This document shows positions 4,830-61,035 of a stretch of 64,000 bases of DNA, one piece after another. The position numbers and the translations under genes were made by a program. A model generated the notes under the pieces. The model saw only the letters and a list, made by a program, of their open reading frames with translations. It was not told where the DNA came from and ran no database searches. Source of the stretch: Candidatus Acetothermia bacterium (GTDB lineage Bacteria; Bipolaricaulota; Bipolaricaulia; RBG-16-55-9); the NCBI GenBank assembly GCA_016201405.1, contig JACQCZ010000014.1, forward strand, positions 356,631 through 420,630, given 5' to 3'. Each line of letters opens with the position of its first letter. The stretch's first letter is position 1.

Positions 4830-5096
4830 TTTAGAGGTTTGTCCTCAAGGTAAAACCCTGCTCGCAAAACTCGCAACGTGGGAAAAACCCTTGAGGCAAA
4901 AGTTGTGATAGGGGGTCAATTTCCTGTTTGCTCTGTCGCTCATGTCTAGCAAGTTCAGTTCGGTTCCTTTTCATTTCCCTTAATGTCACCAGTCTATTCT
5001 CGCAATGGAGCTAAAACATCGTAATAATGTCGGGAGTTTTGAGAGACAAATGAATCAGGTGAGTTGAACTCATCTACATCATTTGATGTAGTGTCC

Positions 5097-5156
5097 TAGG
5101 CTTTGCACAATATCTCAATTCTGCACAAATTCTCACCAGGCTGCACAAAATCTTAC
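5097..5156 (+). repeat. Left-end array of three direct copies of a ctNtgcacaaWaTct-like motif
   Basis: gcacaa cores at 5105, 5123 and 5143. The third copy, gcacaaaatcttac (5143-5156), matches the right end exactly over 14 nt. Confidence 0.7.
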
Positions 5157-5262
5157 ATCTTCTGAATTTTGATAGAGGAGCTAATGTGGTTTTCTAGATC
5201 ACAATGAACCTTGTATTTGCAAGTATGTTGTGATACGTTGGGTAGACAACATAGGAGGGCTT

Positions 5263-5517
5263 ATGGCCGACAGATTGATTGGTCTTGCCGATCCAGATTT
5301 TAAGCAATTTTCTGATGACAGGCAGTGGCTTAACTCTCAATATGAAGAGTACAAGCTGAGATATCCAAATGAGTATGTGGCAATCTATAAGAAGGATTTG
5401 GTTAACCACAATCAAAGCAGTGCAAAATTGCTTACTGATCTCAAGAGCCAGTTAAATGGATCATTCAAGAATGTTGTTATTCAATATATCAATGCTCCAG
5501 TTGTCAGTTCTGATTGA
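5263..5517 (+). CDS. DUF5678-like small protein
   Basis: DRQWLNSQYEEYKLRYPNEYVAIYKKDLVNHNQSSAKLLTDLK resembles the DUF5678 pattern. ATG at 5263 preceded by ggaggg. Confidence 0.6.
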   Translation: MADRLIGLADPDFKQFSDDRQWLNSQYEEYKLRYPNEYVAIYKKDLVNHNQSSAKLLTDLKSQLNGSFKNVVIQYINAPVVSSD

Positions 5518-5966
5518 ATTACATTGGTGTTTGGGGGCATGGGGCATACCCCGAACTAATAGGCAGAATATCTAGTTCAAACCCGCCTTTTAATGGCGAT
5601 ATATCTTTCTGCATAAGTCCAGCCAGCGAGTTTTCGTACATTTCACAAGTGGACTGTGAGCGTTTGGGAATTTCTATGTTATCCGCTCTACAAACAATTC
5701 AGTTCAGGTATCGTGGACGGTTATATGATGGAAAATTGGTGCCATTTTCTAATTTCTTTCCGAATAATGCAGCGGATCGAGTCAATATCCCTGATATTAT
5801 CATTCCTCCCACAATTCAGGTTGCTGGAGAAATAGATAGGCCGAGCATTATTGGCGTGAGTTTTCTCCGCATGTATAACCTTTTGATTGAGAGAAGGCCC
5901 GGACACATAATCGTAACAGATGAAGCTATTCCGTATCCAATGGAAGATAACTCAGAAGAGACTTAG
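5514..5966 (+). CDS. Retropepsin-like (clan AA) protein with degenerate catalytic motif
   Basis: ISFCISPASEFSYISQVDCERLGIS aligns by eye to the xxxVDTGAxxTxIxxxxAxxLGI region; PSIIGVSFLRMYNLLIER resembles the C-terminal ILGxxFLxxFxLxID segment. TTG start overlaps the upstream stop. Confidence 0.5.
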   Translation: MNYIGVWGHGAYPELIGRISSSNPPFNGDISFCISPASEFSYISQVDCERLGISMLSALQTIQFRYRGRLYDGKLVPFSNFFPNNAADRVNIPDIIIPPTIQVAGEIDRPSIIGVSFLRMYNLLIERRPGHIIVTDEAIPYPMEDNSEET

Positions 5967-6016
5967 CATACTTACACCTATTGGGAACTTACGTCAATCC
6001 CAAACTCAAACATTGA

Positions 6017-7185
6017 CTAAATCAGACAGCAAACGTTATGACAAAGCACTTTGCACAACACTTCATTCTCCTGAGCCTTCAGAGTCTTACTCCGCACATG
6101 GGAGCAAAATTTAGCCTTAATCGCGGCAAATGTGCTTTCGACATTCGAGCGCATGTGATACCGAGCAAAGAACTCATCCCGATGGAATGAGAAGTAGTGA
6201 AACATCTTATTCCTGAGTTCATTATCGCTTCTGAAAACAGCCTTATCTTTGAAGGGGATCAGGGCTGTGCCTCCCAGTGAATCTATGAGGTCGAAATTCT
6301 TTCGGGAACTGTAGGCTTTATCGGCTGCAATCTCCTTAATCTGGAAATTCTGTGCCGTTGTTTGAACCAAAGAAGGGAACATCGGGGAATCGTGGCTTTT
6401 AGAGATTTCACACGCTGTAATCACGTTTGTCTTGACCCCTGTCATGATGTGGCACTTGAGCCAATAGTTGGAATTCAGAGACTTCCAGCCCTTCATGCCT
6501 GATCCGTATTTCGTTTCATACCAAGAGTTCTTTCGAGAGGTTGAGAATCCACAGCAAATTGATTCTCGATTGCTGTCAAAGGCTTGCTGCTCTCAATGAT
6601 TAGACCCTTCAGCTTCTCGGTTAGGTCTTCCCGCTCCAAATGATTCAGCACAGAATTGAAGTGCGGAGCTTTAAAGATCAGTCCCTTAGCTTGTGTCTCT
6701 CTCAAGTCCGTTGAGAATTTTCGGGCTGAAAGGGTTGAATAGACCTTCAATGTGGCTGCAAAGGTCATGTCACTATATGGGAGAGGTTTGCGACCACCGG
6801 GAGCTTGTCCTTGCGTTCTGACTGGCTCTGGAAGAGTCTTGCATAGATTGGAGAGCAGGATTTCAAAATATTCCTTCTCCTGAGTTTGTGCAGCATTATA
6901 AGCAGGCCAGTTCTGAGTGTACGATACTTTCACAGTCTTAGTGTTGGTGCTGGAACCATCCTCGTGAACCTCATGCTTTATCGTGAATTCAACGGCGTAT
7001 ATGTGCTTGCAGGGCTGATTCCTCAACTCAAAATCTGGACAATTACACGTTGGGGTCTTGTCCATAAGAACCTGATATTTCCCAAATCCCGTCTGTGACG
7101 GCACAATCCAGACTCTTCCGGTAAATGAGATTGTCTTCTTTGCTGCTATTTCGTGTCCTTTTTGTTCGCGTGTAGTTATTGACAT
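6017..7185 (-). pseudogene. SWIM zinc-finger/DDE transposase, frameshifted (ORFs 7185..6493 and 6496..6017)
   Basis: N-terminal ORF has the SWIM motif CNCPDFELRNQPCKH. The C-terminal ORF has KCHIMTGVKTNVITACEI, ADKAYSSRKN and RSNVESTFAAIKAKF. The two halves are in different frames, with the join near FAVDS/GFSTSR. Confidence 0.8.
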
Positions 7186-7318
7186 AGTGAGGCTTTTCCT
7201 TTCATTTTGATTTACCTAGGAAGCACATTATGATTGGAGTGTGCAGTCTAGGAACCTACGTTTCCTTGGCTGCATTTGGGTGAAGGAGCTGATGACTTCT
7301 TCACCCATGTTTATTATT

Positions 7319-7379
7319 GTACTGCATCTTGCATTACAAGTCAACGCATATCCTTGACATGTGGTGCATATTGCAGTAC
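7319..7379 (+). promoter_or_regulatory. 26-bp imperfect inverted repeat (probable RHH operator) overlapping a possible promoter
   Basis: GTACTGCATCTTGCATTACAAGTCAA / TTGACATGTGGTGCATATTGCAGTAC (20/26 paired, 9-nt spacer). The right arm contains a TTGACA -35-like box. Confidence 0.6.
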
Positions 7380-7406
7380 GCTGTGTTATTAGGAGTGAGA
7401 AATATT

Positions 7407-7613
7407 ATGGGACAAGATAAAACAGAAGTGCTGCAAATTCGGCTTACTGAGAAAGAAAAAGAGGGTTTGCAACTTGCCTCAGATCTGGCAGGGATTTCTC
7501 TTTCATCATGGGTGAGAGAAAGGCTTCGATTGGCCGCGATCAGAGAGTTAGAGGCAGCGAGAAGAAGAGTCCCGTTCATTGAGCCCTTGGCTTTCGGAGA
7601 TGATCATGCCTAG
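7407..7613 (+). CDS. Small ribbon-helix-helix (Arc/MobC-like) DNA-binding protein
   Basis: MGQDKTEVLQIRLTEKEKEGLQLASDLAGISLSSWVRERLRLAA. aggag upstream of ATG 7407. Confidence 0.7.
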   Translation: MGQDKTEVLQIRLTEKEKEGLQLASDLAGISLSSWVRERLRLAAIRELEAARRRVPFIEPLAFGDDHA

Positions 7614-9294
7614 ATCAATTGAAGAAATTGGATACCAACAAATCGGAATTGCAAATATCTTCCACCAATATTGGTTAAAAGTGCCTCCGAATCAAAGGGA
7701 GTATGCGTGGGAAGATGATGAAGTAACAGAATTGTTCCAAGATTTGTCTGAAGCAATCAATCAGGGGGAAGAAAGCTACTTCCTGGGGAGCATAGTTGTG
7801 GTTCCCAAAAGTCCTCAACAACTCGAGGTTGTAGATGGTCAACAAAGGCTAGCCACAACAGCAATTCTTCTTAATTCCATGCGGGAATATTTGATCTCAA
7901 TAAAAGAAGATATGATTGCTGAAAGCATTATGAGGCTTTTGAGTGACATTGATACTGACGCCCGCAACTATGTCCCAAGGTTAACTCTCAATACGGATGA
8001 CAATGAATTCTTCCAGAGATCAATTTTGACTTTGAGTGGCGGTGAGCCAATTGACGCAAGACTCCGCTCACATGAACTGCTAGCTAGAGCTAAAGAACTA
8101 GCCAATGAGCACGTACAAAATATTCTGCGCGAACATAAAGTCTCCGTGCATGGAGATGTCATCAAAAATTGGGTCGATTTCTTGAGGTTTTACACAATAA
8201 TAATATTATTGAAATCACCGAGCGCATCTAATGCTTACAAAATGTTTGAAACATTGAATGATCGAGGTATCAAAACTTCTCAGTCAGACTTAATTAAGAA
8301 TTACTTGTTTGGTCAGGCTGGCTCTCGATTAGTCGAGGCTCAGAGCAAGTGGTCTCAAATGAGGGGCACATTGGAAACGCTTGAAGAGGAAGAGATAACG
8401 CTGACATTTCTTCGACAAGCAATCCTGTCTTATTATGGCCCAGTTCGCAAAGAGAGACTCTTTGATACTGTTGAAACTCAAATACGCGGCACGCAAAGAT
8501 CACTGAGTTTCTTGGATTCTTTGGAATCGACTTCAATTGATTATATTGCATTATTGAATCCAGAGGCCGATAAATGGAACTTGTACCCCGCAACAACTAG
8601 AAAGTCCGTCCAAACATTAAATCTCATCCTAATTCGTCCGATGTGGCCGTTAATGCTAGCTGTTGCAAGGCACTTTGATCCAATTGAGGCCGATAAAGCT
8701 TATCGGGCTATGATTAGTTGGTGCGTCAGATTACTAGTTACTGGTAGTGGTCGAAGTGGAGCCATAGAACAGCCTTTTTATTCTGGTGCTAAAGATATTA
8801 CCGATCAGAAAATCAAGAATGTAAAGGACTTATTCACCGAAATTGAAAATGCAATTCCGAACGATATACGATTTCAACAGGCTTTTGAAATAGTCACAGT
8901 CAGCAAAGCGAGTTTGGCGAGATATTTTTTGAGATCAATAGAGATGACGGCAAAACATGAGCCTGAGCCATGGTTTATACCTAATGACGACAAAGTTGCC
9001 ATTAACCTTGAACACATCTTGCCTAAAAAACCTGATGACAATTGGACACAATTCAATCGAGATGAATTAAAAGCATATTGCAATAAAATTGGCAATCAAG
9101 CCCTGTTGCAAGCTTCAAGTAATTCATTCTTACGTAATTCTCCATTCATTGAAAAGAAAATTGTATTCGGGAAATCTCCCTATGAATTGACCAGGCAAAT
9201 ATCAAATTATGCAGATTGGACTGGGAAAGAAATACTTGAGCGACAAAAACTGCTGGCAAAACTTGCTCTTAAAGCCTGGCCTCTTTTACCTTGA
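7606..9294 (+). CDS. DUF262 + DUF1524 (GmrSD-like) protein
   Basis: DUF262 core NQREYAWEDDEV, VVDGQQRLATTAILL, MFETLNDRGIKTSQSDLIKNYL; C-terminal DUF1524 NLEHILPKKPDDNW and GNQALLQASSNSFLRNSPFIEKK. Starts 8 nt inside the preceding gene. Confidence 0.85.
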   Translation: MPRSIEEIGYQQIGIANIFHQYWLKVPPNQREYAWEDDEVTELFQDLSEAINQGEESYFLGSIVVVPKSPQQLEVVDGQQRLATTAILLNSMREYLISIKEDMIAESIMRLLSDIDTDARNYVPRLTLNTDDNEFFQRSILTLSGGEPIDARLRSHELLARAKELANEHVQNILREHKVSVHGDVIKNWVDFLRFYTIIILLKSPSASNAYKMFETLNDRGIKTSQSDLIKNYLFGQAGSRLVEAQSKWSQMRGTLETLEEEEITLTFLRQAILSYYGPVRKERLFDTVETQIRGTQRSLSFLDSLESTSIDYIALLNPEADKWNLYPATTRKSVQTLNLILIRPMWPLMLAVARHFDPIEADKAYRAMISWCVRLLVTGSGRSGAIEQPFYSGAKDITDQKIKNVKDLFTEIENAIPNDIRFQQAFEIVTVSKASLARYFLRSIEMTAKHEPEPWFIPNDDKVAINLEHILPKKPDDNWTQFNRDELKAYCNKIGNQALLQASSNSFLRNSPFIEKKIVFGKSPYELTRQISNYADWTGKEILERQKLLAKLALKAWPLLP

Positions 9295-9360
9295 CGGATT
9301 AAGCATGATCGAGATTTTATGCAAAATCAACGTCTGCCCATTATCTTGTCAAATTCAGTA

Positions 9361-9379
9361 AGATTTTGTGCAAAGCCTA
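9361..9379 (-). repeat. Right terminal inverted repeat of the 5097-9379 element
   Basis: agattttgtgcaaagccta is the reverse complement of taggctttgcacaaaatct. A related subterminal copy, gagattttatgcaaaat, lies near 9311-9327. Confidence 0.65.
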
Positions 9380-9404
9380 TGGTTTTATTTCACGGTGAAT
9401 CGGA

Positions 9405-9881
9405 ATGAATGAATTTCAGATCTATCCAGCAGGAACTGCTAATGATCTTGCTTCGGTGCGAGAGCTATTTCAGGAGTATGCTGACTCTCTCCCTGTGGAA
9501 GTACTGCCAGAGGATTTTCAGAGCGAGCTTCAGAAATTCCCACAGCCGTACGTTCTTCCAGAGGGCCTCTTACTCATTGCAAAACGAGATGAAGAGATAG
9601 CCGGCTGTATCGCCCTGCGAAAGTTTTCCGGGAAGATTTGCGAGATGAAGCGGCTCTATGTGCGGCAGGAATTTCGAGGCCACTCGCTGGGACGCAGACT
9701 GGCTGTTGCCATCATCCAGCAGGCGAGTGAGCTGGGCTATTCAACGATGAGATTAGACACACTCCCGGCAATGAAAGCTGCGATTGCGCTCTATCATTCC
9801 TTGGGATTTATCGAGATCGAGCCCTATTTTGAGACGAAGATTCAGAAGACAATATTTATGGGGCTGGACTTGAAAGTATGA
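9405..9881 (+). CDS. GNAT family N-acetyltransferase
   Basis: MKRLYVRQEFRGHSLGRRLAVAIIQQA and MRLDTLPAMKAAIALYHSLGFIEI. Confidence 0.88.
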   Translation: MNEFQIYPAGTANDLASVRELFQEYADSLPVEVLPEDFQSELQKFPQPYVLPEGLLLIAKRDEEIAGCIALRKFSGKICEMKRLYVRQEFRGHSLGRRLAVAIIQQASELGYSTMRLDTLPAMKAAIALYHSLGFIEIEPYFETKIQKTIFMGLDLKV

Positions 9882-10390
9882 AAATTGACCAGAGCTGGTA
9901 CATTCGTAATCTCGGCGGCACAGACCGCATCTCGGCTGGTGGAGTCGTCGCTCGAATTGAGCAGAGCCAAATCTATGTGGCTTTGGTCAATGAGACTGGC
10001 GTGAGTGATCTCGTCCTGCCCAAAGGCGGAGTAGAGCCTGGCGAGACGCTGGAAGAGGCAGCCCGGCGCGAGATTCTGGAAGAGGCCGGGCTGTCCAAGA
10101 TTGAGTTTATTGGGAAACTTGGAGTGCGCGAGCGCTATGATCTTTTCAAGGAGCGCTGGATCACAACTCATTATTTTCTGGCTCTTACCGAGCAAATCGA
10201 GGGAACCCCAACGGACTGTGACCACCACTACGGACTCACCTGGGCGCTTATCGATAAGCTTCCTCCTATGTTCTGGCCTGAGCAGCGCGAGCTGATCGAA
10301 AGCAACTGTGCACGAATCATCCAGGACATTGTAGAGGCTTCCAGACTTCCTCATTCTATTCAGTGGCGACCTGAAGGAGATCCTGTGTGA
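9878..10390 (+). CDS. NUDIX hydrolase
   Basis: Nudix box GGVEPGETLEEAARREILEEAGL; ATGA overlap with the GNAT gene. Confidence 0.9.
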   Translation: MKIDQSWYIRNLGGTDRISAGGVVARIEQSQIYVALVNETGVSDLVLPKGGVEPGETLEEAARREILEEAGLSKIEFIGKLGVRERYDLFKERWITTHYFLALTEQIEGTPTDCDHHYGLTWALIDKLPPMFWPEQRELIESNCARIIQDIVEASRLPHSIQWRPEGDPV

Positions 10391-11100
10391 GCTATCTGCT
10401 CATCCTGTTCTTAATTGGCCTATTCATACTCATCCATGAGATGGGGCATTATGCTGCCGCGCGCAGAGTGGGTATTCCGGTGGCTCTGTTATCCATCGGC
10501 TTTGGTCCAAAAATCTGGAGCTTTCGAAGAGAGCGGACTGAGTTCAGACTCTCCTGTATTCCCCTGGGTGGATATGTAGTTCCAGTCATCAATAGCGAAG
10601 CTGATTTTTATGCTTTCTCAGTGAGCCAGAGAACAATCTTTTCACTCGGTGGCCCAGTCGCCAATCTCATCGTGGCACTCTTTCTCTTTGCCATTTTAAA
10701 TCTTGTCACAACAGAATTTTCTCTCTATGGAATCCTGATCAAGCCATTTGCGCAGGTCATCAGCATGATTGCCAAGCTGATCTCATTGATTCCGCTGGCC
10801 ATCACTCGCCCATCTGAGCTTTCCGGTATATTGGGGATTGTCTCAGTTGGGGGTGCCTTTGTTGGGCTGAACGCGGAGAAGATTCTCAATTTTTCCATCT
10901 TGCTCAGTCTCAATTTTGCCATATTCAATTTGATCCCCATCTTGCCGCTCGATGGCGGAAAGCTCCTTCTCTATGCGCTGGAAAAGCTCGATGCGCGCCT
11001 GGCGAGGCTGCACATGCCGCTCGCTCTCACCGGCTGGGTGGTTCTGCTCGGACTCTTCTTCTATCTAACCTTTCAAGACATTCAGCGGCTGGTTCGCTAA
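10387..11100 (+). CDS. Site-2-protease-type M50 membrane metalloprotease (compact)
   Basis: HEMGH active site, GFGPKIWSF, PLGGYV, LPLDGGK; several hydrophobic segments. GTG start overlaps the NUDIX stop. Confidence 0.85.
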   Translation: MSYLLILFLIGLFILIHEMGHYAAARRVGIPVALLSIGFGPKIWSFRRERTEFRLSCIPLGGYVVPVINSEADFYAFSVSQRTIFSLGGPVANLIVALFLFAILNLVTTEFSLYGILIKPFAQVISMIAKLISLIPLAITRPSELSGILGIVSVGGAFVGLNAEKILNFSILLSLNFAIFNLIPILPLDGGKLLLYALEKLDARLARLHMPLALTGWVVLLGLFFYLTFQDIQRLVR

Positions 11101-11123
11101 CTCGTTGAGCTCGATGAGTTAGC

Positions 11124-11166
11124 CCGGGAGCCCTTAAGGAGGTTGGGCTCCCGGATCTTATTTTTT
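11124..11166 (+). terminator. Rho-independent terminator after the M50 gene
   Basis: CCGGGAGCCC-ttaaggaggtt-GGGCTCCCGG followed by atcttatttttt. Confidence 0.8.
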
Positions 11167-11187
11167 GATGACTGTCTCAACCAACTC

Positions 11188-11697
11188 TTAGAGAAGTGGA
11201 ATGATCTGATCTCGAAAACGCATCACCGTCTTTGCCACCAGCCCTTCGCTCTCTACGGAGATGACTCCAGAGGTCTGGTTGTAAATAGCTGCTCCGACTC
11301 TGCTAAAGGCCATGGCCGTGATGCGCACTTGACGAAGCGCAACTTGAGCCACTTTGAAGAGAATCACAGCATCGGCATTGACTTTGGCGGCAAAGAGGCT
11401 CACATCCCGCGGAGTCGACCGATCTGTGATTACAAAACCTAAATCATGCTGGGCATCCCGAACTCTGTCGGGGGGAATCACTTCAAATTTTGGCTTGCCA
11501 TTGAGATATCCTGCAGCTGCACCCAATACAGCCTGCACGAGCTCTCCCGTTGGAGTGAGTGGCTCTACTGCCTGTATGACGATTGCGATCCGGATGGGAG
11601 CGGGAGCCGGGTCGGCACTGACGACTCCGGCATTGAGAAGCGTGAAGCTGAAGATGAGCACCAGCGCTGCTAGACCTGCTTTGCGTAGATTGATCAT
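11188..11697 (-). CDS. Hypothetical secreted protein (start probably MINLRKAG)
   Basis: Signal peptide LAALVLIFSFTLLNAGVVSADPAPAP; no recognised domain. Confidence 0.6.
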   Translation of the reverse strand: MINLRKAGLAALVLIFSFTLLNAGVVSADPAPAPIRIAIVIQAVEPLTPTGELVQAVLGAAAGYLNGKPKFEVIPPDRVRDAQHDLGFVITDRSTPRDVSLFAAKVNADAVILFKVAQVALRQVRITAMAFSRVGAAIYNQTSGVISVESEGLVAKTVMRFRDQIIPLL

Positions 11698-11908
11698 AGA
11701 CATCCTCTCCTTGCATCGAGATAGGCATATTGGGCTCCAAGACATGATAGAAAATCTATAGAAGGAGCTTCAAAAGCGACTAAAGAAGAGCTCAACAATT
11801 GCTCTATGCCAAGTCTTTGTAAGACAAAACTAAGTCATCGGGAAGGATCCTTTTTGCCAGGCGTACATGAGGGTGAGACCAGCGAAGCTGGCAAAGGAGT
11901 GACTCAAT

Positions 11909-12643
11909 ATGAAGAAGCTCGTCCCAGTCGCAGCCGCATCCCTTGGAATCTTATTGATCTTTGTTCTGGGTACTCAGTTCCCCGGACTCGTCAGTGCGCA
12001 AAGTACTGACATGGGAAGCACAGTGCTCTCAAATCCAAGAACAATCTCAGTCTCTGGCACGGGAGTTGCAGCTGCAAAGCCCGATCAGCTCAATGCCGAG
12101 ATCGGCGTCATCTCTGTCCAGAGCAGCCTGGATGAGGCAATGGCCGAAGCCAACGGCAAGATGGCCGCCGTTATTGCTGCGCTCAGAGGACTGGGCATCG
12201 AGGACAAAGATATCCAGACCTCCAATTTCACAATCTCGATCGAGCGACCCAATTATCCGGGGCCGATCACAGGCTATCAGGTCTCGAATACGCTTCATGT
12301 CACCATTCGCGATCTGAGTGTCGCCGGAAACGCCATGGACCAGGCCGTCAAGGCTGGCGCAAACGACGTCTATCGTGTCGCATTCGCCGTAAGCGACACA
12401 GCAATGTTGGCCACTCAAGCGCGTCAGTCTGCCGTAGCCGACGCCATGAGCACAGCCCGCGAGATCGCGAGCGCGGCAGGTGTACAACTGGGGCGGGTCC
12501 TTACAATCACTACATACGACTCACAAGCCTCGAACAGCTTCGACCAGAGGCTTGTCTATGACGCAAGCTCGAGCTCTGTGCCAGTTCAGCCAGGCGAGTT
12601 GAATTTCAACGCCAATGTTCAAGTGATCGTTGAGATCAAATAA
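11909..12643 (+). CDS. SIMPL-domain (DUF541) secreted protein
   Basis: ISVSGTGVAAAKPDQLNAEIGVISVQSSLDEAMAEANGKMAAVIAALRGLGIEDKDIQTSNF. Confidence 0.9.
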   Translation: MKKLVPVAAASLGILLIFVLGTQFPGLVSAQSTDMGSTVLSNPRTISVSGTGVAAAKPDQLNAEIGVISVQSSLDEAMAEANGKMAAVIAALRGLGIEDKDIQTSNFTISIERPNYPGPITGYQVSNTLHVTIRDLSVAGNAMDQAVKAGANDVYRVAFAVSDTAMLATQARQSAVADAMSTAREIASAAGVQLGRVLTITTYDSQASNSFDQRLVYDASSSSVPVQPGELNFNANVQVIVEIK

Positions 12644-12669
12644 TAAAACTTCCCCTTGTATCCCATGAT

Positions 12670-12709
12670 GAGAGCGCTCTGCGCAGCATGGCAGGGCGCT
12701 CTCGCTTTT
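12670..12709. terminator. Hairpin between convergent genes (likely terminator)
   Basis: GAGAGCGC...GCGCTCTC followed by gctttta. Confidence 0.6.
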
Positions 12710-12715
12710 ACTGGA

Positions 12716-13741
12716 TTATTTGGCTTGCAGTTCGCCTGTGATCTTGAGGTTGTCGCCTGATTTTGTGGGCGTTGCGATCAGGCACGATTCTTTGTCATCA
12801 CCCGACACGATCAACACAAACTTGTTCCCATCTTTGAGAAGAACAGTCTGTTTCCCTTTGTTAAAGAAAAGCATGGTTTTCCGCTCCCCTTCGGCAACAT
12901 AGGTGGCATCAACCTGCTGGGTCTTGGAAAGGGACTGGATTGTGAGGAGATTGGGAGAGTCCACGCCGATCTCAAACAGATCAGCACCCGATGAATCTTG
13001 CACACGCATGATAGACTGAGCGCTGCTCGTGGTGATATTGACATCTTTTACTTTGGTGAGTCCGGCAGGGCACTTCAGATCGCTGGTCGAGCCAGGAACA
13101 GGAAGAGTCGGCTGCGGAGCGGTCGAGATTGTATTTATCGTTGGCAATTCCACCAAGATCAAGAAGACTGCGCTGAGCGAATCGAGCGTCAAAATTGAAT
13201 AGGGGCTTGTGTTGTCCGTGCGCGGCACAACCACAAAGGCCGCGATCTTGCCCTCTTGGCTGAGATCAATGAGCACGATGATAAGAGAATCTTTGGTCAG
13301 ATAGACGACAGCGCCATATTGAATTTCAGAGTCACCCGGATTGACCGGATATTTCTTTGGAAATGTGAAGAGGCCGTAGTAGACAAAATTGACTTTGCCC
13401 TCAAAGAGCTGACCTATTTTCAGCGCATCCAGATAGAGAATTCCATTGACGCCGATGTCGCTGGTGGCATCGCCGAATTTGAGCTGCTTGTCAAACTCAG
13501 TTACCCACTGGGAGCCGCTGAGGTTGGTTGTCGTCTTTGTCTGGATTTCGTAATCGCCAAAGCCACTGTCATTGGGCAAAAGAATGGATACTTTTGGAGT
13601 ATTGGAACTGCTTTGCGCGCTCGCGGTAAGAAGTGGCCCGACATATCCGGTCGTGATCAAACTGCCTACGACTGCAACGAGTGTGACGAGCCAGAATCTT
13701 CGAATGGCCATCAGCATCCCCCCTTGCAACTTGCTGGCCAA
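12716..13741 (-). CDS. Hypothetical secreted protein
   Basis: N-terminal signal RRFWLVTLVAVVGSLITTGYVGPLLTASAQ; long ORF, no recognised domain. Confidence 0.6.
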   Translation of the reverse strand: MASKLQGGMLMAIRRFWLVTLVAVVGSLITTGYVGPLLTASAQSSSNTPKVSILLPNDSGFGDYEIQTKTTTNLSGSQWVTEFDKQLKFGDATSDIGVNGILYLDALKIGQLFEGKVNFVYYGLFTFPKKYPVNPGDSEIQYGAVVYLTKDSLIIVLIDLSQEGKIAAFVVVPRTDNTSPYSILTLDSLSAVFLILVELPTINTISTAPQPTLPVPGSTSDLKCPAGLTKVKDVNITTSSAQSIMRVQDSSGADLFEIGVDSPNLLTIQSLSKTQQVDATYVAEGERKTMLFFNKGKQTVLLKDGNKFVLIVSGDDKESCLIATPTKSGDNLKITGELQAK

Positions 13742-13887
13742 TCTTAAGCCGAAGAGCAGCGGATAATCAATACCCCTCTGAGTTGGGGCTGGATGCTGTA
13801 GATGAAAAGCATTGAATGATATGGAGTCAGTTTGAATGAAGATTTCGCGAATTAGCCTTTGGGGGCCGCTTACGCCTGCTTCAAGAG

Positions 13888-14030
13888 AAAGCGCTTGGTC
13901 GGATCACTCATTCGTCCCGCTTGAGCAAAAACCCTGGGCTGTTTCAGGAGGTAGGTCCCAAGGAAAACTCTGAGAGAGCGAAGAGCGGAATGCGCATTCT
14001 TCGGCAATCTTCTGGCCGACCAAGCACTTT
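13888..14030. ncRNA. Candidate structured RNA closed by a 15-bp long-range stem
   Basis: AAAGCGCTTGGTCGG (13888-13902) pairs with CCGACCAAGCACTTT (14016-14030): 14/15 Watson-Crick, and the remaining pair is a G-U wobble only on the minus strand. Confidence 0.35.
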
Positions 14031-14055
14031 CGTCTTGTAAGGAGGTGTCTGCAAC

Positions 14056-14163
14056 ATGTCTAGCAGCTTTCGTATATTTATAGTACCCATACAAATCATC
14101 TATGTACTCTATCAGGTATTATATCATCGAAAATCTAAATGTCAAGCGTTGAAAAAATTATAA
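14056..14163 (+). CDS. Possible 35-aa small membrane peptide
   Basis: MSSSFRIFIVPIQIIYVLYQVLYHRKSKCQALKKL; upstream taaggaggtg, 10-nt spacing. Confidence 0.3.
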   Translation: MSSSFRIFIVPIQIIYVLYQVLYHRKSKCQALKKL

Positions 14164-14199
14164 AATTAAAAAGGGCTCCCTCAACTATGTAAGGGAGCC
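14160..14199 (-). terminator. Rho-independent terminator downstream of the FadB-like gene
   Basis: GGCTCCCT...AGGGAGCC hairpin followed on the minus strand by ctttttaatttta. Confidence 0.75.
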
Positions 14200-14232
14200 T
14201 TTACAAGATTTGAACTCTGAAAAGAGGCTGCG

Positions 14233-16205
14233 TTATTTGCCTTTAAATTCGGGCTTCTTCTTCATCAGGAAGGCCGTTGTACCTTCAATCATATCTTCGG
14301 TGCTAAAGAGGAGTCCGAAGGCCTCGCGCTCGATGAAGAGCGCCGCCTCCATCGGTGCCTGACCTCCCCAATCCACAACCTTCTTGGTAAAGCGAATGGC
14401 GATGGGCGGGCCGGAGGCCAGCTTCTCGGCAAAGCTGCGCACCTCGCCATCAAATTTATTATTATCCACAACTTTGTTGATCAGACCCCACTGCTCGGCC
14501 TGCTCGGCGCTGATTCGGTCGCCGATCATGACCAGCTCTTTGGTGCGAGAGGGGCCGATCAGCCGCACCAGCCGCTGCGTGCCACCGCCTCCAGGAATGA
14601 GCCCCAGCTTGATCTCCGGCTGGCCCAGCTCCGAGCGCTTGGAGGCGATTCGAAAGTCACAAGCCAGGGCCAGTTCCAGCCCGCCACCGAGCGCGAAGCC
14701 ATCAATGGCTGCGATCACTGGCTTTGGAAATTGGGCAGGTGCATTGAAAAACTCCCCCAGCTCTGCGAATTGATAGGGCTTGCCGCCCGCGAACTCGGTG
14801 ATGTCGGCACCCGCGCTAAAGGCCTTGTCACCTGCGCCTTTGATGACCACCACCCGGACCGCATCATTCTTGGCCGCGTCTGCAAATACAATGGGCAGCT
14901 CTTCGCGCATCTCAGAGTTGATGGCATTGAGTCTGTGTGGGCGGTTGAGTGTGATCCAGGCGATGCCCTGCTTGTCCACTTCGAGCTTGATCGCTTTGAA
15001 CTCACGCGCGCCAGCGCTTGCGCTGCTGCCATACTTATAAAATCCTTCACCAGCAGCCTGACCCGTCTTGCCCTCTTTTACCATCTTCTTTAATAAATTA
15101 CTTGGCTTGTAGCGCTCATCTTTGTGCTCTTTTGCAAGCCCTTCGAGTGCCGACAACATCTTGTCCATGCCGATGCGATCGGCGCGAGCCAGAATCCCTT
15201 CTGGAAAGCCAGCGCCAAGCTGGACCGCCAGATCGATGTCAGATGGGACACTGACGCCATCATCAATGAGCTGACAAGCTTCGTTGACCATGAGCGCATA
15301 GATTGTGATTGGGTCGAAATTCTTGCCTGCATCACGGGAGAAGTTTGCGCCCTGCCCATCTTTGTATTGATAAAACCCGGCACCTGTCTTGCGCCCCAAT
15401 CGGTTCTTCTTGACGACATCTTCAATCAGACTTGGCACTGGCAACCCGGCCTCTTTGGTGAGGTGATAGCCAATGTCAATTCCGGTCAAGTCCTGTAATT
15501 CAAATGGCCCCATGGGAAAGCCCTCGTAGTATTTCATGCGGCTGTCCACCTCTTCGACTGTAGCCTGGCCTCGGCTCACAATCCAGGCCGACTCAAACAT
15601 GAAGGGTCCTACCAAAACTCTGTTGACAATAAATCCAAACGTGTCTTTCTCGACTCGAATGGGGGATTTTCCAAATTTCTTGGTGAGATCAACCGTGAGC
15701 TTCATCACGTTTTCGTCGGTCTCTTTGCCCTTAATGACCTCGACCAGCGCCATCTTGACAGGCGGGTTGAAGTAGTGCATCCCGACGACCTGGCCTGGGC
15801 GCTTCGTTGCTTTGCTGATCTCGGTGATGCTGAGCGAGCTGGTGTTAGAGGCTAAAATTGCATGTTTCTGAGCATATTTATCAAGATCTGTGAAGAGCTC
15901 CTTCTTCAATTTCATGATCTCAGGCGCTGCCTCAATGACGAAGTCTGCGTCCTTGACGGCCTCTTTGATATCCACAACGGCCTTGACGCGCTTTAGCGTC
16001 GCCTTGGCCTGATCGGGCGTCATCGTGCCCTTCTCGGCGAACTTGTTGAGGCTCCACTCGATGGCCTTATACCCCTTCTGGACAAGCTCTTCGTTGATGT
16101 CGCGCATGACGACGTTGTAGCCAGCGAGGGCGGCCAATTCAGCGATGCCATGACCCATGGTTCCTGCACCGATGACGGCAATGGTTTTAATATCTTCCAG
16201 TTTCA
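14233..16205 (-). CDS. 3-hydroxyacyl-CoA dehydrogenase/enoyl-CoA hydratase fusion (dehydrogenase N-terminal, hydratase C-terminal)
   Basis: N-terminal IAVIGAGTMGHGIAELAALAGYNV Rossmann motif; C-terminal crotonase GAGDKAFSAGADITEF and IAAIDGFALGGGLELALACDFRIAS. Confidence 0.92.
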
Positions 16206-16319
16206 TAAAAGTCTCCTCTGCACATGAATTTTGATTTAAGTAGACAACTGATCGTAGCATAGCAAGCCAGATCTCTCAAATTGAAATACTCGAAAATTAT
16301 AAGATGAAGCGGATGCTAT

Positions 16320-16598
16320 ATGTTAAAGCCCAAACCTTTAGAAGAATATAGAATTAAACCCCATGCCTTGTTCCAATTGAGGCGCAGACAAATCAGCGAA
16401 GTTGCCTTGCGTCACCTATTACAATCGCCTGACCAAATCATTGAAGACAGAAATGGACGATACATTTATCAATCGAAAATGCGTTTTAAAGACTCTGGAA
16501 AGGAATATCTTATTCGGGTCGTGATGGATTTGACATCTGATCCAGCAGAAGTTGTAACGGCTTATCAAACGAGTAATATAAAGAAGTATTGGAGGTAG
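16320..16598 (+). CDS. DUF4258-like protein
   Basis: RIKPHALFQLRRRQISEVALRHLLQSPDQIIEDRNGRYIYQSK...YLIRVVMDLTSDPAEVVTAYQTS. Confidence 0.75.
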   Translation: MLKPKPLEEYRIKPHALFQLRRRQISEVALRHLLQSPDQIIEDRNGRYIYQSKMRFKDSGKEYLIRVVMDLTSDPAEVVTAYQTSNIKKYWR

Positions 16599-16798
16599 GG
16601 ATGAAAGTCATTTATGACAAAGAATCGGACACACTTTCGCTTATCCTCAAAGAATCGCTAGTTGAAGAGAGCGATGAAGCGAAAGATGGCATCATCTTTG
16701 ATTACGACGCTCAAGGCAACCTCGTGTCCGTCGAAATTTTGAATGCCTCCGAACGCATTACCCAACCAGAAGCTCTTGAATTTCAACTTGCCCATTAA
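16589..16798 (+). CDS. DUF2283-like protein
   Basis: MKVIYDKESDTLSLILKESLVEESDEAKDGIIFDYDAQGNLVSVEILNAS; overlaps the preceding gene. Confidence 0.8.
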   Translation: MEVGMKVIYDKESDTLSLILKESLVEESDEAKDGIIFDYDAQGNLVSVEILNASERITQPEALEFQLAH

Positions 16799-16811
16799 GC
16801 CGATTGCTTTA

Positions 16812-16841
16812 TTGACAACCCGTCCGCAAAATCGCTACACT
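16812..16841 (+). promoter_or_regulatory. Sigma70-like promoter upstream of the MTH865-like/thiolase genes
   Basis: TTGACA, 18-bp spacer, TACACT. Confidence 0.55.
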
Positions 16842-16873
16842 AGACCATTACTTTAATTCGGAGGTCACTGAAT

Positions 16874-17128
16874 ATGACACCACACGATGAACTCGAAAAA
16901 CAACTCAAAACGATCTTCGGAAAAGCCAAATATCCCATCCGCAGCATCATGGATCTGCTCCCCATTCTGCCCCAGGGTCCCATGACCCAGTTCAAGGCAG
17001 GCACCAAGTCTTGGTCAGCGATGGAGCTTTCTCAGAAGTTCGGCGGCAAGGCCAAATTTCCTTACAACGACGTGGACACATTCGTAAAGGACATCCTCGA
17101 AGGACTCTCTCAATCTGGAGAGTTGTAA
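16874..17128 (+). CDS. MTH865-like family protein
   Basis: LKTIFGKAKYPIRSIMDLLPILPQGPMTQFKAGTKSWSAMEL...FPYNDVDTFVKDIL matches the family pattern. Confidence 0.7.
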   Translation: MTPHDELEKQLKTIFGKAKYPIRSIMDLLPILPQGPMTQFKAGTKSWSAMELSQKFGGKAKFPYNDVDTFVKDILEGLSQSGEL

Positions 17129-17131
17129 ATC

Positions 17132-18268
17132 ATGGCAAGCCGCGAGCCAGTCATCCTTGAGGCCGTTCGCACGGCCATCGGCAAACGAGATGGGGCATTC
17201 AAAGAGACCCGACCCGATAACCTCGCTGGCTTCGCACTCAAAGAGCTCGTAAAGCGCACCAAAGTCGATCCCAATCTGATTGAAGATCTGGTCGTTGGCT
17301 GCGTCACACAGCGCGGCGAGCAGGGAGGCAACCTCTCACGGCTCATCGGCCTCACTGCCGGACTTCCCGTCACAGTGGCTGGCACGACAGTGAACCGGCT
17401 TTGCGGCTCGGGCCAGCAGGCCGTCAATTTCGCAGCCCAAGAGATTTATGCAGGCGTCGCAGACTTTGTGATTGCAGGCGGCGTCGAGAGCATGTCCCGC
17501 GAGCCGATGGGCTCCGATATCGACAAGCCGCTCAACCCCAAATTAATAGAAGCCTACGAGATTGTCTGGCAGGGCGAATCGGCGGAGCGCATCGCCGACA
17601 AGTGGAAGATCTCCCGCAAAGAGCTTGATGAATTCTCGCTCGCCAGTCACACGAAGCTGGCTAAAGCTCAGGATGAGAAGCGCTTTGATTCCCAAATTGT
17701 GCCTGTCCAGATCAATGGCACGGCCATCATGAATGATGAAGGGCTGCGCCGCTCATCAACTCTTGAAAAGATGGGCACACTCATGCCCTCATTCCGGCCT
17801 GATGGCAAGGTGACGGCTGGGAATTCGAGCCAGATCAGCGATGGCGCATCGATGTTATTACTCAGCACACGCGAGAAGGCCAAAGAATTGAAGATGAAGC
17901 CGAAGGCGCGATTTGTCAGTTGGGCCGTCGCAGGCGTAGACCCCACTATCATGCTCACAGGGCCAATCCCTGCTACTCAAAAGGTACTGGAAAAGTCCGG
18001 GCTTTCGATGAGCGATATTGATCTATTTGAAGTAAACGAGGCATTTGCTTCTGTGCCGATCGCCTGGGGACGCGAGCTCGATGTGGACTGGGAGCACGCC
18101 AATGTCAATGGCGGTGCAATTGCTCACGGACACCCACTCGGCGCGACGGGAGCCATTCTCTTTACCAAAGCAATCTATGAGCTGGAACGAATTGACGGGC
18201 AGTATGCACTCATCACCATGTGCATCGGTTTTGGACAGGGGATTGCCACGATTATCGAAAGACTCTAG
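17132..18268 (+). CDS. Acetyl-CoA acetyltransferase (thiolase)
   Basis: NRLCGSGQQAVNFAAQEI active-site Cys; NGGAIAHGHPLGATGA; MCIGFGQGIATI. Confidence 0.92.
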   Translation: MASREPVILEAVRTAIGKRDGAFKETRPDNLAGFALKELVKRTKVDPNLIEDLVVGCVTQRGEQGGNLSRLIGLTAGLPVTVAGTTVNRLCGSGQQAVNFAAQEIYAGVADFVIAGGVESMSREPMGSDIDKPLNPKLIEAYEIVWQGESAERIADKWKISRKELDEFSLASHTKLAKAQDEKRFDSQIVPVQINGTAIMNDEGLRRSSTLEKMGTLMPSFRPDGKVTAGNSSQISDGASMLLLSTREKAKELKMKPKARFVSWAVAGVDPTIMLTGPIPATQKVLEKSGLSMSDIDLFEVNEAFASVPIAWGRELDVDWEHANVNGGAIAHGHPLGATGAILFTKAIYELERIDGQYALITMCIGFGQGIATIIERL

Positions 18269-18282
18269 TTAAAAGCAATTTC

Positions 18283-18430
18283 TGGATTCCTGCTTTCGCA
18301 GGAATGACATTCCATTTGGCACGCAACATTCTTTCTTCATCGAAAATCTTATCATCGAGCGCGAGAAGCCTCAACCTAATTTATCGTGCCCGTGATTCCG
18401 GCCAAGGCACAGCCGCGAGCCGGAATCCAG
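18283..18430. repeat. Dispersed intergenic repeat, copy 1
   Basis: tggattcctgctttcgcaggaatgacattc...cgcaacattctttcttcatcgaaaatctt...cccgtgattccggccaaggcacagc...ccggaatccag. Confidence 0.7.
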
Positions 18431-50685: not shown

Positions 50686-51141
50686 ATGAGTCAGAGAGAT
50701 GAGCTTATGAGAATTGCTGAAGCCGTCGCCAAAGAGCAAGGTGTGGAGTTCTACTGGATCAAATACCAGAACTCTCCAGGCTATCAGCGGCTGCAGGTGT
50801 TGATTGATAAAGAGGGTGGCGTGAGCTTGAGCGATTGCGAGAGAGTGAGCCGAGCCTTGGGCGTCCAGTTTGACGGGCAGATTCATCATAGTTATGAACT
50901 AGAGGTATCGTCCCCAGGGATGGAGCGGCAGCTATTTATCGCCAGCCATTATCGTAGGGCCATTGGACAGACCATACAGATCAAGACATTCGCGCCTGTC
51001 AGTGGCCAAAAAGTCTGGAGTGGCCTTTTGACAGGCGTTCATGATGACCAAATCGATCTCCAGATCGCTCAGGGTCGGCTTGAGATTGCCATTGAGCAGA
51101 TCGCAAACGCGCACGTAACACCCAATTTCGACCTCTCTTAG
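50686..51141 (+). CDS. rimP: Ribosome maturation factor RimP
   Basis: LQVLIDKEGGVSLSDCERVSRALGVQFD, SYELEVSSPGMERQL. Confidence 0.9.
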   Translation: MSQRDELMRIAEAVAKEQGVEFYWIKYQNSPGYQRLQVLIDKEGGVSLSDCERVSRALGVQFDGQIHHSYELEVSSPGMERQLFIASHYRRAIGQTIQIKTFAPVSGQKVWSGLLTGVHDDQIDLQIAQGRLEIAIEQIANAHVTPNFDLS

Positions 51142-51173
51142 CGTCAAAGCCCCAAAGGAGCTGGGATGAAAAG

Positions 51174-52163
51174 ATGAACGTTGAATTCTTAGAGGCATTA
51201 GAAGAGATGGCCAAAGAAGAGGGCATTGAACGCGACGAGCTCTATGAGGCCGTCAACAAAGGCTTAGCCATTGCTTACATGGAAGAGTTTGGGGAGGCCA
51301 AAGACCTCCAGGTCGAGATTGACCGCACCTCTGGAGATATAAAAATCACGGCCGATGGAAACACGATTGAGCTAGACCTCTCTAAGCTCGGCCGCATCGC
51401 TACGCGCCGGGCTGAAGAGACGATCCGCCAGGAAATTGTCAAGCGCCGCAGGCTGATGATCTATCAGCGCTTTCAGACTCGCATTGGTGAGATTATCAAC
51501 GGGAGCATCCACCGCTTTGAAGGTCGAAGCGTTTGGATCAACCTGGGACAAGCCGAAGCCCTTCTTGGGGAAGATGATCGCATTCCAGGGGAGCATTACC
51601 GCCCGGGCCAGATGGTGCGAACGTACCTTTACGATGTCAAAGAGACACAGGGCGATCCACGAATTTACGTCTCACGCTCGCACAAAAATTTTGTCAAAAA
51701 GTTATTGGAGCTGGAAGTGCCTGAAATCGAAAAGAGATTGGTGGAAGTGGTGGCCATCGCCCGCGAGGCGGGGATTCGCACCAAGCTCGCTGTGCGCTCT
51801 CTCGTCCCTGAGATCGAGCCCGTCGGCACGTGCGTTGGCGCGGCAGGCTCCCGTGTGCGGGAGGTGGTCAAAGAGCTTTCGGGTGAAAAGATCGACATCA
51901 TCCGCTGGAGCGAAGATGTGCGTGAGCTGATCAAAAACAGCCTTGAGCCGGCCTCGGTCCTTCAGATTGATCTGGATCCAGAGAGGAAGAAGGCTGTCGT
52001 GCTCATTCCCCATGATGAGCTGAGTCTGGCCATCGGCAAGGGCGGCCAGAATGTCCGCCTCACCGCCAAGCTGACGGAATGGAGCATTGACGTAACGAGC
52101 CCAGAAGAGCTTAAGCAAAAGAACAAATCCTCTTCCACTTCTGAAGAGCCAGAAAAGAACTGA
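51174..52163 (+). CDS. nusA: Transcription termination/antitermination factor NusA
   Basis: FLEALEEMAKEEGIERDELYEAVNKGLAIAY, VGTCVGAAGSRVREVVKELSGEKIDIIRW, IGKGGQNVRLTAKLTEWSIDV. Confidence 0.95.
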   Translation: MNVEFLEALEEMAKEEGIERDELYEAVNKGLAIAYMEEFGEAKDLQVEIDRTSGDIKITADGNTIELDLSKLGRIATRRAEETIRQEIVKRRRLMIYQRFQTRIGEIINGSIHRFEGRSVWINLGQAEALLGEDDRIPGEHYRPGQMVRTYLYDVKETQGDPRIYVSRSHKNFVKKLLELEVPEIEKRLVEVVAIAREAGIRTKLAVRSLVPEIEPVGTCVGAAGSRVREVVKELSGEKIDIIRWSEDVRELIKNSLEPASVLQIDLDPERKKAVVLIPHDELSLAIGKGGQNVRLTAKLTEWSIDVTSPEELKQKNKSSSTSEEPEKN

Positions 52164-52172
52164 AGCCGTTCC

Positions 52173-55070
52173 ATGCGCCAACGCCTGCTGCTCGGGATCT
52201 ATCGCCTGACACGATATTACGCATGGGCTGTTCTTGTCTTTTTTTTGACGCTTGCCCTGCTTTCGCTCTTTTTTCTTCGAAACCTTCCGATCAACAGCTC
52301 CCTTCAAGAGCTCTTACCTCGCAATGACAGCCTGGTCGAGAGGATGCAGGAGCAGCAGAAACAACTCGAAGACACCGAAGAGATTACAGTGCTGCTCCAC
52401 CTCACTGCCGCACCTCCATCTGAACAAGCGGGAATTGACGAGCTCAAGGCAGCAGCTCAGCAGATCCATGATGCCATCTGTACCCCATCGCAGACCGGAG
52501 ATGCCACATGTGGTGAATTTATTTGGGTTCGCTATCAAGAACCGCCTGCACCAGTCACTCCTTTCTCGTTCAATCTCACGGATCTGGAAAATGGAGTCGC
52601 GGCTCTAAAAGCTGAGGTCGAACAGCTAAATAAGGCAGCCACGGAGACCCCGAATCTGGAAGAAAAATTCGGCAGCTTAACGAAGAGTTATAACGATATC
52701 ACGCAAGCGCTCGATCAATTGCTGAGCGGTCTGGTGGTCTTTAGCCCTCAGGCTCAACAGATCGTAAATCTGGGTGGGAAACTGAATGACCTAAAAAGTT
52801 TTAATGGCTCTGTCTACACAATCCTTGATCAGTTACCTTCTAAACTGACAGAGGCACAGGCTGAGATTGATAAAGTCCGCCAATATCTCAACAGCATTGA
52901 GCCCCAGCAGGCTTCTTCCATTGATGATGGATTGCGTCTATCAGAGGACAAACAATCTCTACTTGTATCCGTGCGCCCCCAGCGCTCTTCTCAAGAGGGG
53001 ATTGATTACAACGGCCATGTCATCGGAATCGTACGCGATTCCATTCAATCTTTGCACTTTGACGCTCAGGGAATCGAGACGGGTTTGGTTGGTCCCTATG
53101 TATTCTCGGCTGAATCCGATAGCGAAGTACGCCGGGACACAAGCTTGGCTACGCTGATCACGATTATTGGCGTCTTGATTCTTTTCATGGTCGTCTTGCG
53201 CCGATATTTCTATCCGCTGCTAGCCACATTTCCCATCTTAATTGCGCTCATCTTTACCGTTGCTGCGGCCAAGCTCTTCTTTGGAGGTCTCAACCTGGTG
53301 ACCGCATTCCTGCCTGCGATTGTGTTAGGGCTGGGCATTGATTACGGCATCCAGTTCATCACGCATTATATGGAAGAGAGGCGCGGCTCGCGCCGCGTTG
53401 CCCCTGCGCTGCGTGCCACTCTCCTTATCAAAGGGCGTGCCATGCTCAGCGCCGCATCCGCAGCATCATTGGTAATGCTTGCACTCGGTATAATTGCCAA
53501 GACTGCCGGGCTCTCCCAGATCGGCTACATTTTGGCTATTGGAGTCATTCTTTCCTGTTTTATGACGCTAGTCTTGCTTCCGGCACTGATTATCGCCGTC
53601 AATGCTGTGCTAGGCCGAAGGCTGCGAAGCCATCCACCGCGCCCCTGGAACCTTACTGGCGGCGCACGACTTATTATCAAAGCACGCTGGGCTATTATTG
53701 GCTTTACGATCATTGGATCTATCGTCATCCTCTTCCCAGCAAGCAAGGTCGACTTCAAATTTGTCGATGACAATCTTCAGCCAACCAATCTTCCCAGCAA
53801 TCACGTGAGCCAGTTCATTCAGGCCAATTTTAAGCAAGGTCCCAATCGCGGGAATGTCTTCGTCTTCTTTGTAGAGAATGACAAGGCAAGAATGGTCACC
53901 GAACAACTCTCGCAAATGGAGGCTGTGGACAGAGTTGAAGGTTTTTACAAGTCGATACCAGAACCAGAGAATTTAGAAAAAATCAAGGGGTTCTTGCAGG
54001 AGCTGAAAAGTCTAGATCCAGTCACTCCTCTTCAAGCCATAGACCGGAACCTTGAATATCTTCACCGACAACTTGAAGATGCAGATGCCATCCGAAGCGG
54101 CCTGGCCGCACTTTCGAAAGAGCTCAATGATGGAAAGAACCAGGTGAGCAATTCGACCGGAGATGAAGACTTGGCCTCAGAATTCTCTAGCCTCCGTGAC
54201 TCTACGGACCGCATCAACACCAGGTTGGGCGATCTTCAAGAGGCAAAGACTAGCTACACTTTAGGAAGCGCGCTTTTCAGCCTGGATGATTTGATACGCC
54301 GAATTCAGAAGGCGCAAAGCGATGTTCCGACTCCAGAAACCGTTGATGATTTTGTTGCCAATCCACAGAAGTATCTCTCCAAAGAGCTTCAAAACCGCCT
54401 CTTTTATTCGGATCCCGTCAGTGGAGTATTGAAGCAGCGAGTTCTGGTCTATCTCAAGAGCGAATGGCTCTGGGATAGCCGGAAGTATGGCCAGTTTATT
54501 CAAGATGCGTCGATAATATCGCCGGACTTTCTTGGGCTTCCCATGCTGCGGGCGGAACTCGAAGATTATATGAAAGTCGACTTTAAGTGGTCTACGTTAT
54601 TTGCCATCTTAATTATTATGCTGGTGCTCGCTCTTGATTTCCGCGGATTAAAGCTGCGTGGCGCAACCTTCTTCTCGCTGATTGCTCTGGGGCTGGGTTA
54701 TCTCTGGATGCTCGGAGTGATGGGGCTGCAAGGCATTAACTTTAACGTAGCGAACATCTTAATCTCGCCCCTGTTGCTGGGCCTGGGTGTCGATAATTGC
54801 GTCTATCTCTTCCATCGTTTTCATGACTTCCGCTCTCAAAAAGCACTGAACCATGGAGCCACCGCCAAAGAGCTCATCGAGCAATCCACTTCCTCGACGG
54901 CCATCCCGATTGTGGCCAATACCCTCGCGGCCATGATCTCCTTTGGCAGCCTCCTCATCGCCCAAACCCCCATTCTCCGCATCTTAGGGGAATCTGCGGT
55001 CATTGGACTTGGATTTATGACTCTCTTCAGCCTGACTCTGCTTCCCTCAATTATCTCCTTGAGGCGTTGA
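52173..55070 (+). CDS. RND/MMPL-superfamily transporter
   Basis: Two sets of hydrophobic segments; VLGLGIDYGIQFITHYMEERR and LLGLGVDNCVYLFHRFHD. Confidence 0.88.
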   Translation: MRQRLLLGIYRLTRYYAWAVLVFFLTLALLSLFFLRNLPINSSLQELLPRNDSLVERMQEQQKQLEDTEEITVLLHLTAAPPSEQAGIDELKAAAQQIHDAICTPSQTGDATCGEFIWVRYQEPPAPVTPFSFNLTDLENGVAALKAEVEQLNKAATETPNLEEKFGSLTKSYNDITQALDQLLSGLVVFSPQAQQIVNLGGKLNDLKSFNGSVYTILDQLPSKLTEAQAEIDKVRQYLNSIEPQQASSIDDGLRLSEDKQSLLVSVRPQRSSQEGIDYNGHVIGIVRDSIQSLHFDAQGIETGLVGPYVFSAESDSEVRRDTSLATLITIIGVLILFMVVLRRYFYPLLATFPILIALIFTVAAAKLFFGGLNLVTAFLPAIVLGLGIDYGIQFITHYMEERRGSRRVAPALRATLLIKGRAMLSAASAASLVMLALGIIAKTAGLSQIGYILAIGVILSCFMTLVLLPALIIAVNAVLGRRLRSHPPRPWNLTGGARLIIKARWAIIGFTIIGSIVILFPASKVDFKFVDDNLQPTNLPSNHVSQFIQANFKQGPNRGNVFVFFVENDKARMVTEQLSQMEAVDRVEGFYKSIPEPENLEKIKGFLQELKSLDPVTPLQAIDRNLEYLHRQLEDADAIRSGLAALSKELNDGKNQVSNSTGDEDLASEFSSLRDSTDRINTRLGDLQEAKTSYTLGSALFSLDDLIRRIQKAQSDVPTPETVDDFVANPQKYLSKELQNRLFYSDPVSGVLKQRVLVYLKSEWLWDSRKYGQFIQDASIISPDFLGLPMLRAELEDYMKVDFKWSTLFAILIIMLVLALDFRGLKLRGATFFSLIALGLGYLWMLGVMGLQGINFNVANILISPLLLGLGVDNCVYLFHRFHDFRSQKALNHGATAKELIEQSTSSTAIPIVANTLAAMISFGSLLIAQTPILRILGESAVIGLGFMTLFSLTLLPSIISLRR

Positions 55071-55181
55071 ACATGACTCTCGTTCGAAGCTATAATGGTG
55101 ATAATGACTTTATTCTTTTGACTTTGACAGACTGAGGAATGATGGACCTGTTGGTTATCACTAGAGAGAGGTGTGAGTTCG

Positions 55182-56801: not shown

Positions 56802-56808
56802 AGCCGAT

Positions 56809-56838: not shown

Positions 56839-56865
56839 GCAGTAAGATTCTCTAAGGAGGGACGG

Positions 56866-61023: not shown

Positions 61024-61035
61024 GAGAGAAGATCT

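What the first reader, a model, noticed from the sequence alone, without database searches (positions are those of the whole stretch)
5097..9379. 4.3-kb transposon-like island with near-perfect terminal inverted repeats and no visible transposase of its own
Seen: taggctttgcacaaTatct (5097-5115) and the reverse complement of 9361-9379, taggctttgcacaaAatct, match at 18/19. The segment contains DUF5678-like/retropepsin-like genes, a broken SWIM transposase and an RHH/DUF262 pair, and it separates ordinary chromosomal genes. Inference: a non-autonomous or trans-mobilised cargo element, or a decayed one, carrying candidate defence/toxin-antitoxin-like modules. This is the best candidate in the window for an undescribed system.
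Basis: partly seen in the sequence, partly recalled or inferred. Interest (0 to 1): 0.75.

Follow-up and report, generated by a model that had tools for sequence, protein, structure and literature searches.

The report
Decayed IS903-like transposon carrying restriction gene
The island is an old, broken "jumping gene" that carries an intact DNA-restriction enzyme; it belongs to a family of transposons, found here in both archaea and bacteria, that often carry restriction-modification systems from genome to genome.

Summary
The repeats are real (0.04 matches expected by chance). They are the ends of a 4,279-bp unit transposon, 5099-9377. I examined about 80 homologues. 55 sit between inverted repeats starting GGCTTTG-like, and 45 of these have a perfect 9-bp target duplication. 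A second copy in the same genome (contig C6) has the duplication GATTTAGGC and carries a Dcm-type methyltransferase, Vsr and an antitoxin-like gene. Ends and duplication length match IS903 (IS5 family), checked on a plasmid copy. Differences are a SWIM N-terminus in most members and several kb of passenger genes. Passengers are enriched in restriction-modification: 368 PADLOC families hit, against 18 for flanking genes, none of those a methyltransferase. The window's passengers are an intact GmrSD/HEC-06 enzyme behind a ribbon-helix-helix gene, and an uncharacterised gene pair. The window copy has no target duplication, and no relative offers an empty site. I found no published description of this family in the library held; ISfinder could not be searched.

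The parts
5099..9377 (.). whole element, 4,279 bp, from end to end
5099..5115 (+). left terminal inverted repeat GGCTTTGCACAATATCT
5104..5148 (+). three TGCACAA units (5104, 5122, 5142) at 18-20 bp steps; same arrangement of repeated end units seen in other family members
   Evidence: read; family count
5263..5517 (+). 84-aa DUF5678-like gene (weak match)
5514..5966 (+). 150-aa gene of unknown family, overlapping the DUF5678-like gene; retropepsin identity not supported
5990..7185 (-). transposase pseudogene: SWIM + first part of DDE domain (7185-6493), rest of DDE domain (6496-6017); frame lost after the first catalytic Asp, TAG near the C-terminus
7407..7613 (+). 68-aa ribbon-helix-helix protein (NikA-like/antitoxin-like)
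7606..9294 (+). 562-aa GmrSD-type protein (DUF262 + DUF1524), HEC-06; motifs QR, DGQQR, FETLN, HILP present
9361..9377 (-). right terminal inverted repeat GGCTTTGCACAAAATCT

Best explanation
5099-9377 is a decayed unit transposon of a (mostly) SWIM-bearing branch next to the IS903 group of the IS5 family. Shown: the repeats are transposon ends, the transposase is its own and is broken, and the family makes 9-bp target duplications. Inferred: an intact enzyme binds the repeated end units and inserts the element at a staggered 9-bp cut. Passenger genes lie on both sides of the transposase; in the family they are often compact restriction-modification or antitoxin-like modules, which could protect the host from phages and also punish loss of the element. 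Here the cargo is an RHH-accompanied GmrSD enzyme, predicted to cut DNA with modified bases, plus an unknown gene pair. This copy can no longer move unless a related transposase acts on it.
For: TIRs far above chance. Intact homologues of the transposase lie between GGCTTTG-type ends with 45 perfect 9-bp TSDs; decoy best score 21.7 against 30.2 for the window and up to 51 for others. C6 copy in the same genome with TSD GATTTAGGC. Identical element at two sites in two genomes. Plasmid IS903 has the same end start and a 9-bp TSD. Cargo enriched in restriction-modification against flanks of the same loci (versus 64, 93). Low GC inside. GmrSD_N and GmrSD_C with motifs.
Against: The window copy has no TSD (tagtgtccta / tatggtttta). 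No empty site could be found. The GmrSD activity and the role of the RHH gene are untested. The cargo-stabilises-carrier idea is inference.
Confidence: 0.88

Rival explanations
1. The island is a composite of two related elements: left and right ends come from different insertions that recombined or were joined by a deletion, which is why there is no target duplication.
For: No TSD at the window copy, while 45 of 56 family loci have a perfect one. Elements of this family do sit side by side in other genomes, and the genome holds at least two other copies or remnants.
Against: The two ends are 15/16 alike, closer than either is to the C6 ends, and the layout (one transposase between two cargo blocks) and size are ordinary for a single element.
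Confidence: 0.2
2. A non-autonomous island mobilised by an unrelated transposase, with the SWIM gene a chance passenger or a nested insertion.
For: The transposase is broken today.
Against: Intact homologues lie between the same kind of ends with 9-bp TSDs in many genomes; no other transposase with these ends was found in this genome.
Confidence: 0.04
3. The 19-bp repeat is a general intergenic repeat unrelated to insertion.
For: None found beyond the missing TSD.
Against: Only these two full matches occur in 2 Mb; the family has 45 perfect TSDs; GC is 8 points below the flanks.
Confidence: 0.01

Closest known systems
IS903 group of the IS5 family
   Same: Ends start GGCTTTG, 9-bp target duplication, DDE domain related to IS5 transposases (IS903B 9-bp repeats also in PMC9769513).
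   Different: IS903 is about 1 kb with one gene and no SWIM domain; here several kb of passenger genes, usually a SWIM N-terminus, repeated units at the ends, and a long branch to IS5 proteins. All eight intact transposases score below the NCBIfam cut-off.
Transporter ISs (tIS), as described for IS1595 (Siguier et al. 2009, cited in PMC3129680)
   Same: IS ends enclosing passenger genes unrelated to transposition.
   Different: Different transposase family; cargo here is mainly restriction-modification. The comparison of cargo with IS1595 elements was not made.
Restriction-modification systems on composite transposons and IS-linked movement (PMC3031569; Furuta et al. 2010 cited there)
   Same: Restriction-modification genes moved by IS activity, with the idea that they stabilise the carrier.
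   Different: Those use two flanking IS copies; here a single unit transposon with one transposase inside.
HEC-06 / GmrSD type IV restriction enzymes
   Same: DUF262 + DUF1524 in one protein, motifs present, PADLOC E 2.9e-162; HEC-06 is reported to work as a single protein (PMC11411939).
   Different: Here preceded by an overlapping ribbon-helix-helix gene and carried on a transposon.

Membership tests
IS903 group / IS5 family | terminal inverted repeat starting GGCTTTG | tested here: met
   window, C6 and most family loci; IS903 on a plasmid for comparison
IS903 group / IS5 family | 9-bp target duplication | tested here: inconclusive
   met by 45 family loci and by C6; not met by the window copy
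IS903 group / IS5 family | IS5-type DDE transposase above the curated cut-off | tested here: not met
   eight intact relatives score 103-139 bits on NF033579, cut-off 140; window half 100 bits. So it is filed as a relative, not as a member
IS903 group / IS5 family | about 1 kb, transposase as the only gene, no SWIM domain | tested here: not met
   median 5.0 kb with cargo; SWIM in window; IS5 transposases mostly align from profile position 88 or later
Transporter IS (tIS) | IS ends enclosing passenger genes with no role in transposition | tested here: met
GmrSD / HEC-06 type IV restriction enzyme | DUF262 with QR, DGQQR and FxxxN motifs | tested here: met
   motif list from PMC11411939
GmrSD / HEC-06 type IV restriction enzyme | DUF1524 His-Me nuclease domain | tested here: met
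   GmrSD_C E 1e-21, HILP at residue 470
GmrSD / HEC-06 type IV restriction enzyme | cleaves modified DNA / blocks phages | not testable with these tools
   needs an assay
Type II toxin-antitoxin (RHH + DUF262) | partner is a toxin neutralised by the RHH protein | not testable with these tools
   RHH matches are to NikA-like and antitoxin-like regulators; no toxin family matched

The most novel reading that the evidence does not exclude
A family of mostly SWIM-bearing IS903-like transposons is a main vehicle that moves restriction-modification and related defence systems between phyla of bacteria and archaea, and builds defence islands by inserting one element after another at the same 9-bp site.
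Probability: 0.5. Interest if true: 0.72.

Novelty: new variant of a known kind. Interest (0 to 1): 0.56.

Why it matters
Restriction-modification systems spread very widely, but small dedicated vehicles for them are poorly documented. Here one transposon family with clear ends and clean 9-bp duplications carries a different compact restriction system in many copies. It is found in 46 of 295 genomes searched in one archaeal phylum and more rarely in others. Two questions become testable: how such systems move, and whether they stabilise their carrier. The end motif and duplication also give a simple way to delimit candidate defence cargo in unannotated genomes.

Tried and rejected
A single-protein search of genome contigs with the SWIM half found nothing; the two-copy alignment then found 20 loci. 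Plasmids and phages held no close relative of this transposase, viral contigs none. Programmed frameshifting in the transposase was considered and rejected: homologues are in one frame, and a second lesion (TAG) lies near the C-terminus. TGA read as tryptophan, suggested by the C6 copy, was rejected because ordinary neighbouring genes here end in TGA. Empty site in relatives: gene order is not conserved in the four family genomes, and no fetched locus shows one. Target consensus: none. The retropepsin idea for 5514-5966 was dropped, and no viral relative of that protein was found. The C12 pattern match is at chance level.

Full report
Observation. The two 19-bp ends match at 18/19 in inverted orientation and are far above chance (0.04 expected). 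In the 1.99-Mb genome they are the only perfect matches to the pattern. Comparison with relatives places the true ends two bases further in, at 5099 and 9377. The island is 41.8% GC between flanks of 50%.

The transposase is the element's own. The minus-strand genes 7185-6493 (SWIM, PF04434) and 6496-6017 (DDE_Tnp_1, IS5-like) are two parts of one protein. A homologue on contig C6 of the same genome is in a single frame, broken by a TGA at a conserved tryptophan. An alignment gives the likely catalytic residues: Asp in FAVDSSG, Asp in SADKAY, Glu in RSNVEST (the catalytic role is inferred from DDE transposases in general). In the window the frame is lost just after the first Asp, and a TAG cuts off the last residues, so it is a pseudogene.

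Other copies in the same genome. The C6 element (L013:3573-9049) has ends GGCTTTGCCTCA and GGCTTTGCCCCA and a perfect 9-bp duplication GATTTAGGC. It carries Vsr, a cytosine methyltransferase, an unidentified 432-aa gene next to them (possibly the restriction enzyme; inference), a SocA/Panacea protein and a 100-aa protein. A third, decayed copy on C5 keeps one end and the tail of the transposase.

The family. Searching with the two-copy alignment gave 20 loci in Acidobacteriota, Planctomycetes, Rokubacteria, a deltaproteobacterium, Hyphomicrobium and several archaea. Phylum searches with a 12-row profile matched 6 of 297, 1 of 392, 46 of 295 and 17 of 394 genomes; the last two are the phyla of archaeal genomes. 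I took about 80 transposase loci, chosen only for the transposase, and looked for paired ends. 55 elements passed (score 27 or more); the best score for decoys with uncomplemented right arms was 21.7. 45 have a perfect 9-bp duplication, without a target consensus. Sizes run from 2.1 to 9.3 kb, median 5.0 kb. L108 and L109 hold the same element, essentially identical over about 5 kb, in two genomes at sites with different duplications, so it has moved recently. Ends often carry extra copies of the end motif at about 20-bp steps (50 copies against 0.55 expected). The window's left end has TGCACAA at 5104, 5122 and 5142.

Relation to known elements. The best NCBIfam model is IS5 (NF033579), always below its cut-off. 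A plasmid IS903-type copy fetched for comparison has the end GGCTTTGTTGAATAAATC and a 9-bp duplication GTTGGTAAC; that this is the IS903 end is from my own knowledge, and the 9-bp repeat of IS903B is also in PMC9769513. So these elements work like IS903. They are separated from six IS5-family transposases by long branches. Most also have a SWIM zinc finger in front of the region shared with IS5 proteins; 17 of 78 rows appear to lack it. The tree mixes phyla and puts the window and C6 copies with Acidobacteriota sequences.

Cargo. Of 144 cargo proteins, Pfam finds 11 N6_Mtase, 10 N6_N4_Mtase, 3 C5 and 3 D12 methyltransferase matches (a protein can match more than one family), 5 specificity subunits, 3 RE_MamI matches, 2 Vsr, 1 NgoPII and 1 Druantia DruA. 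Among 143 flanking proteins from the same loci, the 25 families listed contain no restriction-modification family (that list is truncated). PADLOC gives 368 families for cargo, the commonest matching 15 proteins, but only 18 for flanks, each matching one protein and none a methyltransferase (the flank list is complete). By motif inspection about 22 of 55 elements carry a DNA methyltransferase (approximate). The window element instead carries an RHH gene overlapping an intact DUF262-DUF1524 gene (HEC-06, E 2.9e-162) with DGQQR, FxxxN and HILP motifs, and an uncharacterised gene pair at 5263-5966.

How it probably works. Shown: ends, own transposase, 9-bp duplications in the family, decay of this copy. 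Inferred: the transposase binds the repeated end units and inserts at a staggered 9-bp cut; the cargo defends the host or makes loss of the element costly. GmrSD enzymes cut DNA carrying modified cytosines (PMC11411939), so the window cargo is predicted to act against phages with modified genomes.

Limits. The window copy lacks a duplication and no empty site could be tested. ISfinder was not available, and the library searches do not prove that the family is unnamed. Cargo genes are simple ORF calls, so some in GC-rich genomes may be false.

Noticed in passing
L205-L210 joined (Blastocatellia MAG contig DNNE01000076.1), 7899-61096: Five elements lie head to tail at one target, separated by GAACCATAG or GAACCATAGAACCATAG: 7899-10385, 10404-18301, 18311-50740 (32 kb), 50750-56101, 56119-61096. 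Elements seem to insert again and again at each other's ends.
   Followed up: partly
L023:11506-11530; L028:9393-9488: Further signs of side-by-side insertion: in L023 another GGCTTTGCC end starts about 10 bp after the right end; in L028 two right ends 95 bp apart are both followed by TCGATCCG.
   Followed up: no
L109:5161-8275: The L109 copy has about 3 kb more than its otherwise identical sister L108, with part of the element repeated: a later insertion or duplication inside the element.
   Followed up: no
window 5074-5091: An inverted repeat CTACATCA-TT-TGATGTAG lies just outside the left end; the array in DNNE01000076.1 also starts at a palindrome (TATGGTTCGAACCATA). A preference for palindromic targets was not tested.
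   Followed up: no
L036:3256-3558: An archaeal element carries a TATA-binding-protein-like gene beside its restriction-modification genes.
   Followed up: no
L013:5171-6469: 432-aa gene between the cytosine methyltransferase and the transposase with no Pfam match; a candidate restriction enzyme.
   Followed up: no
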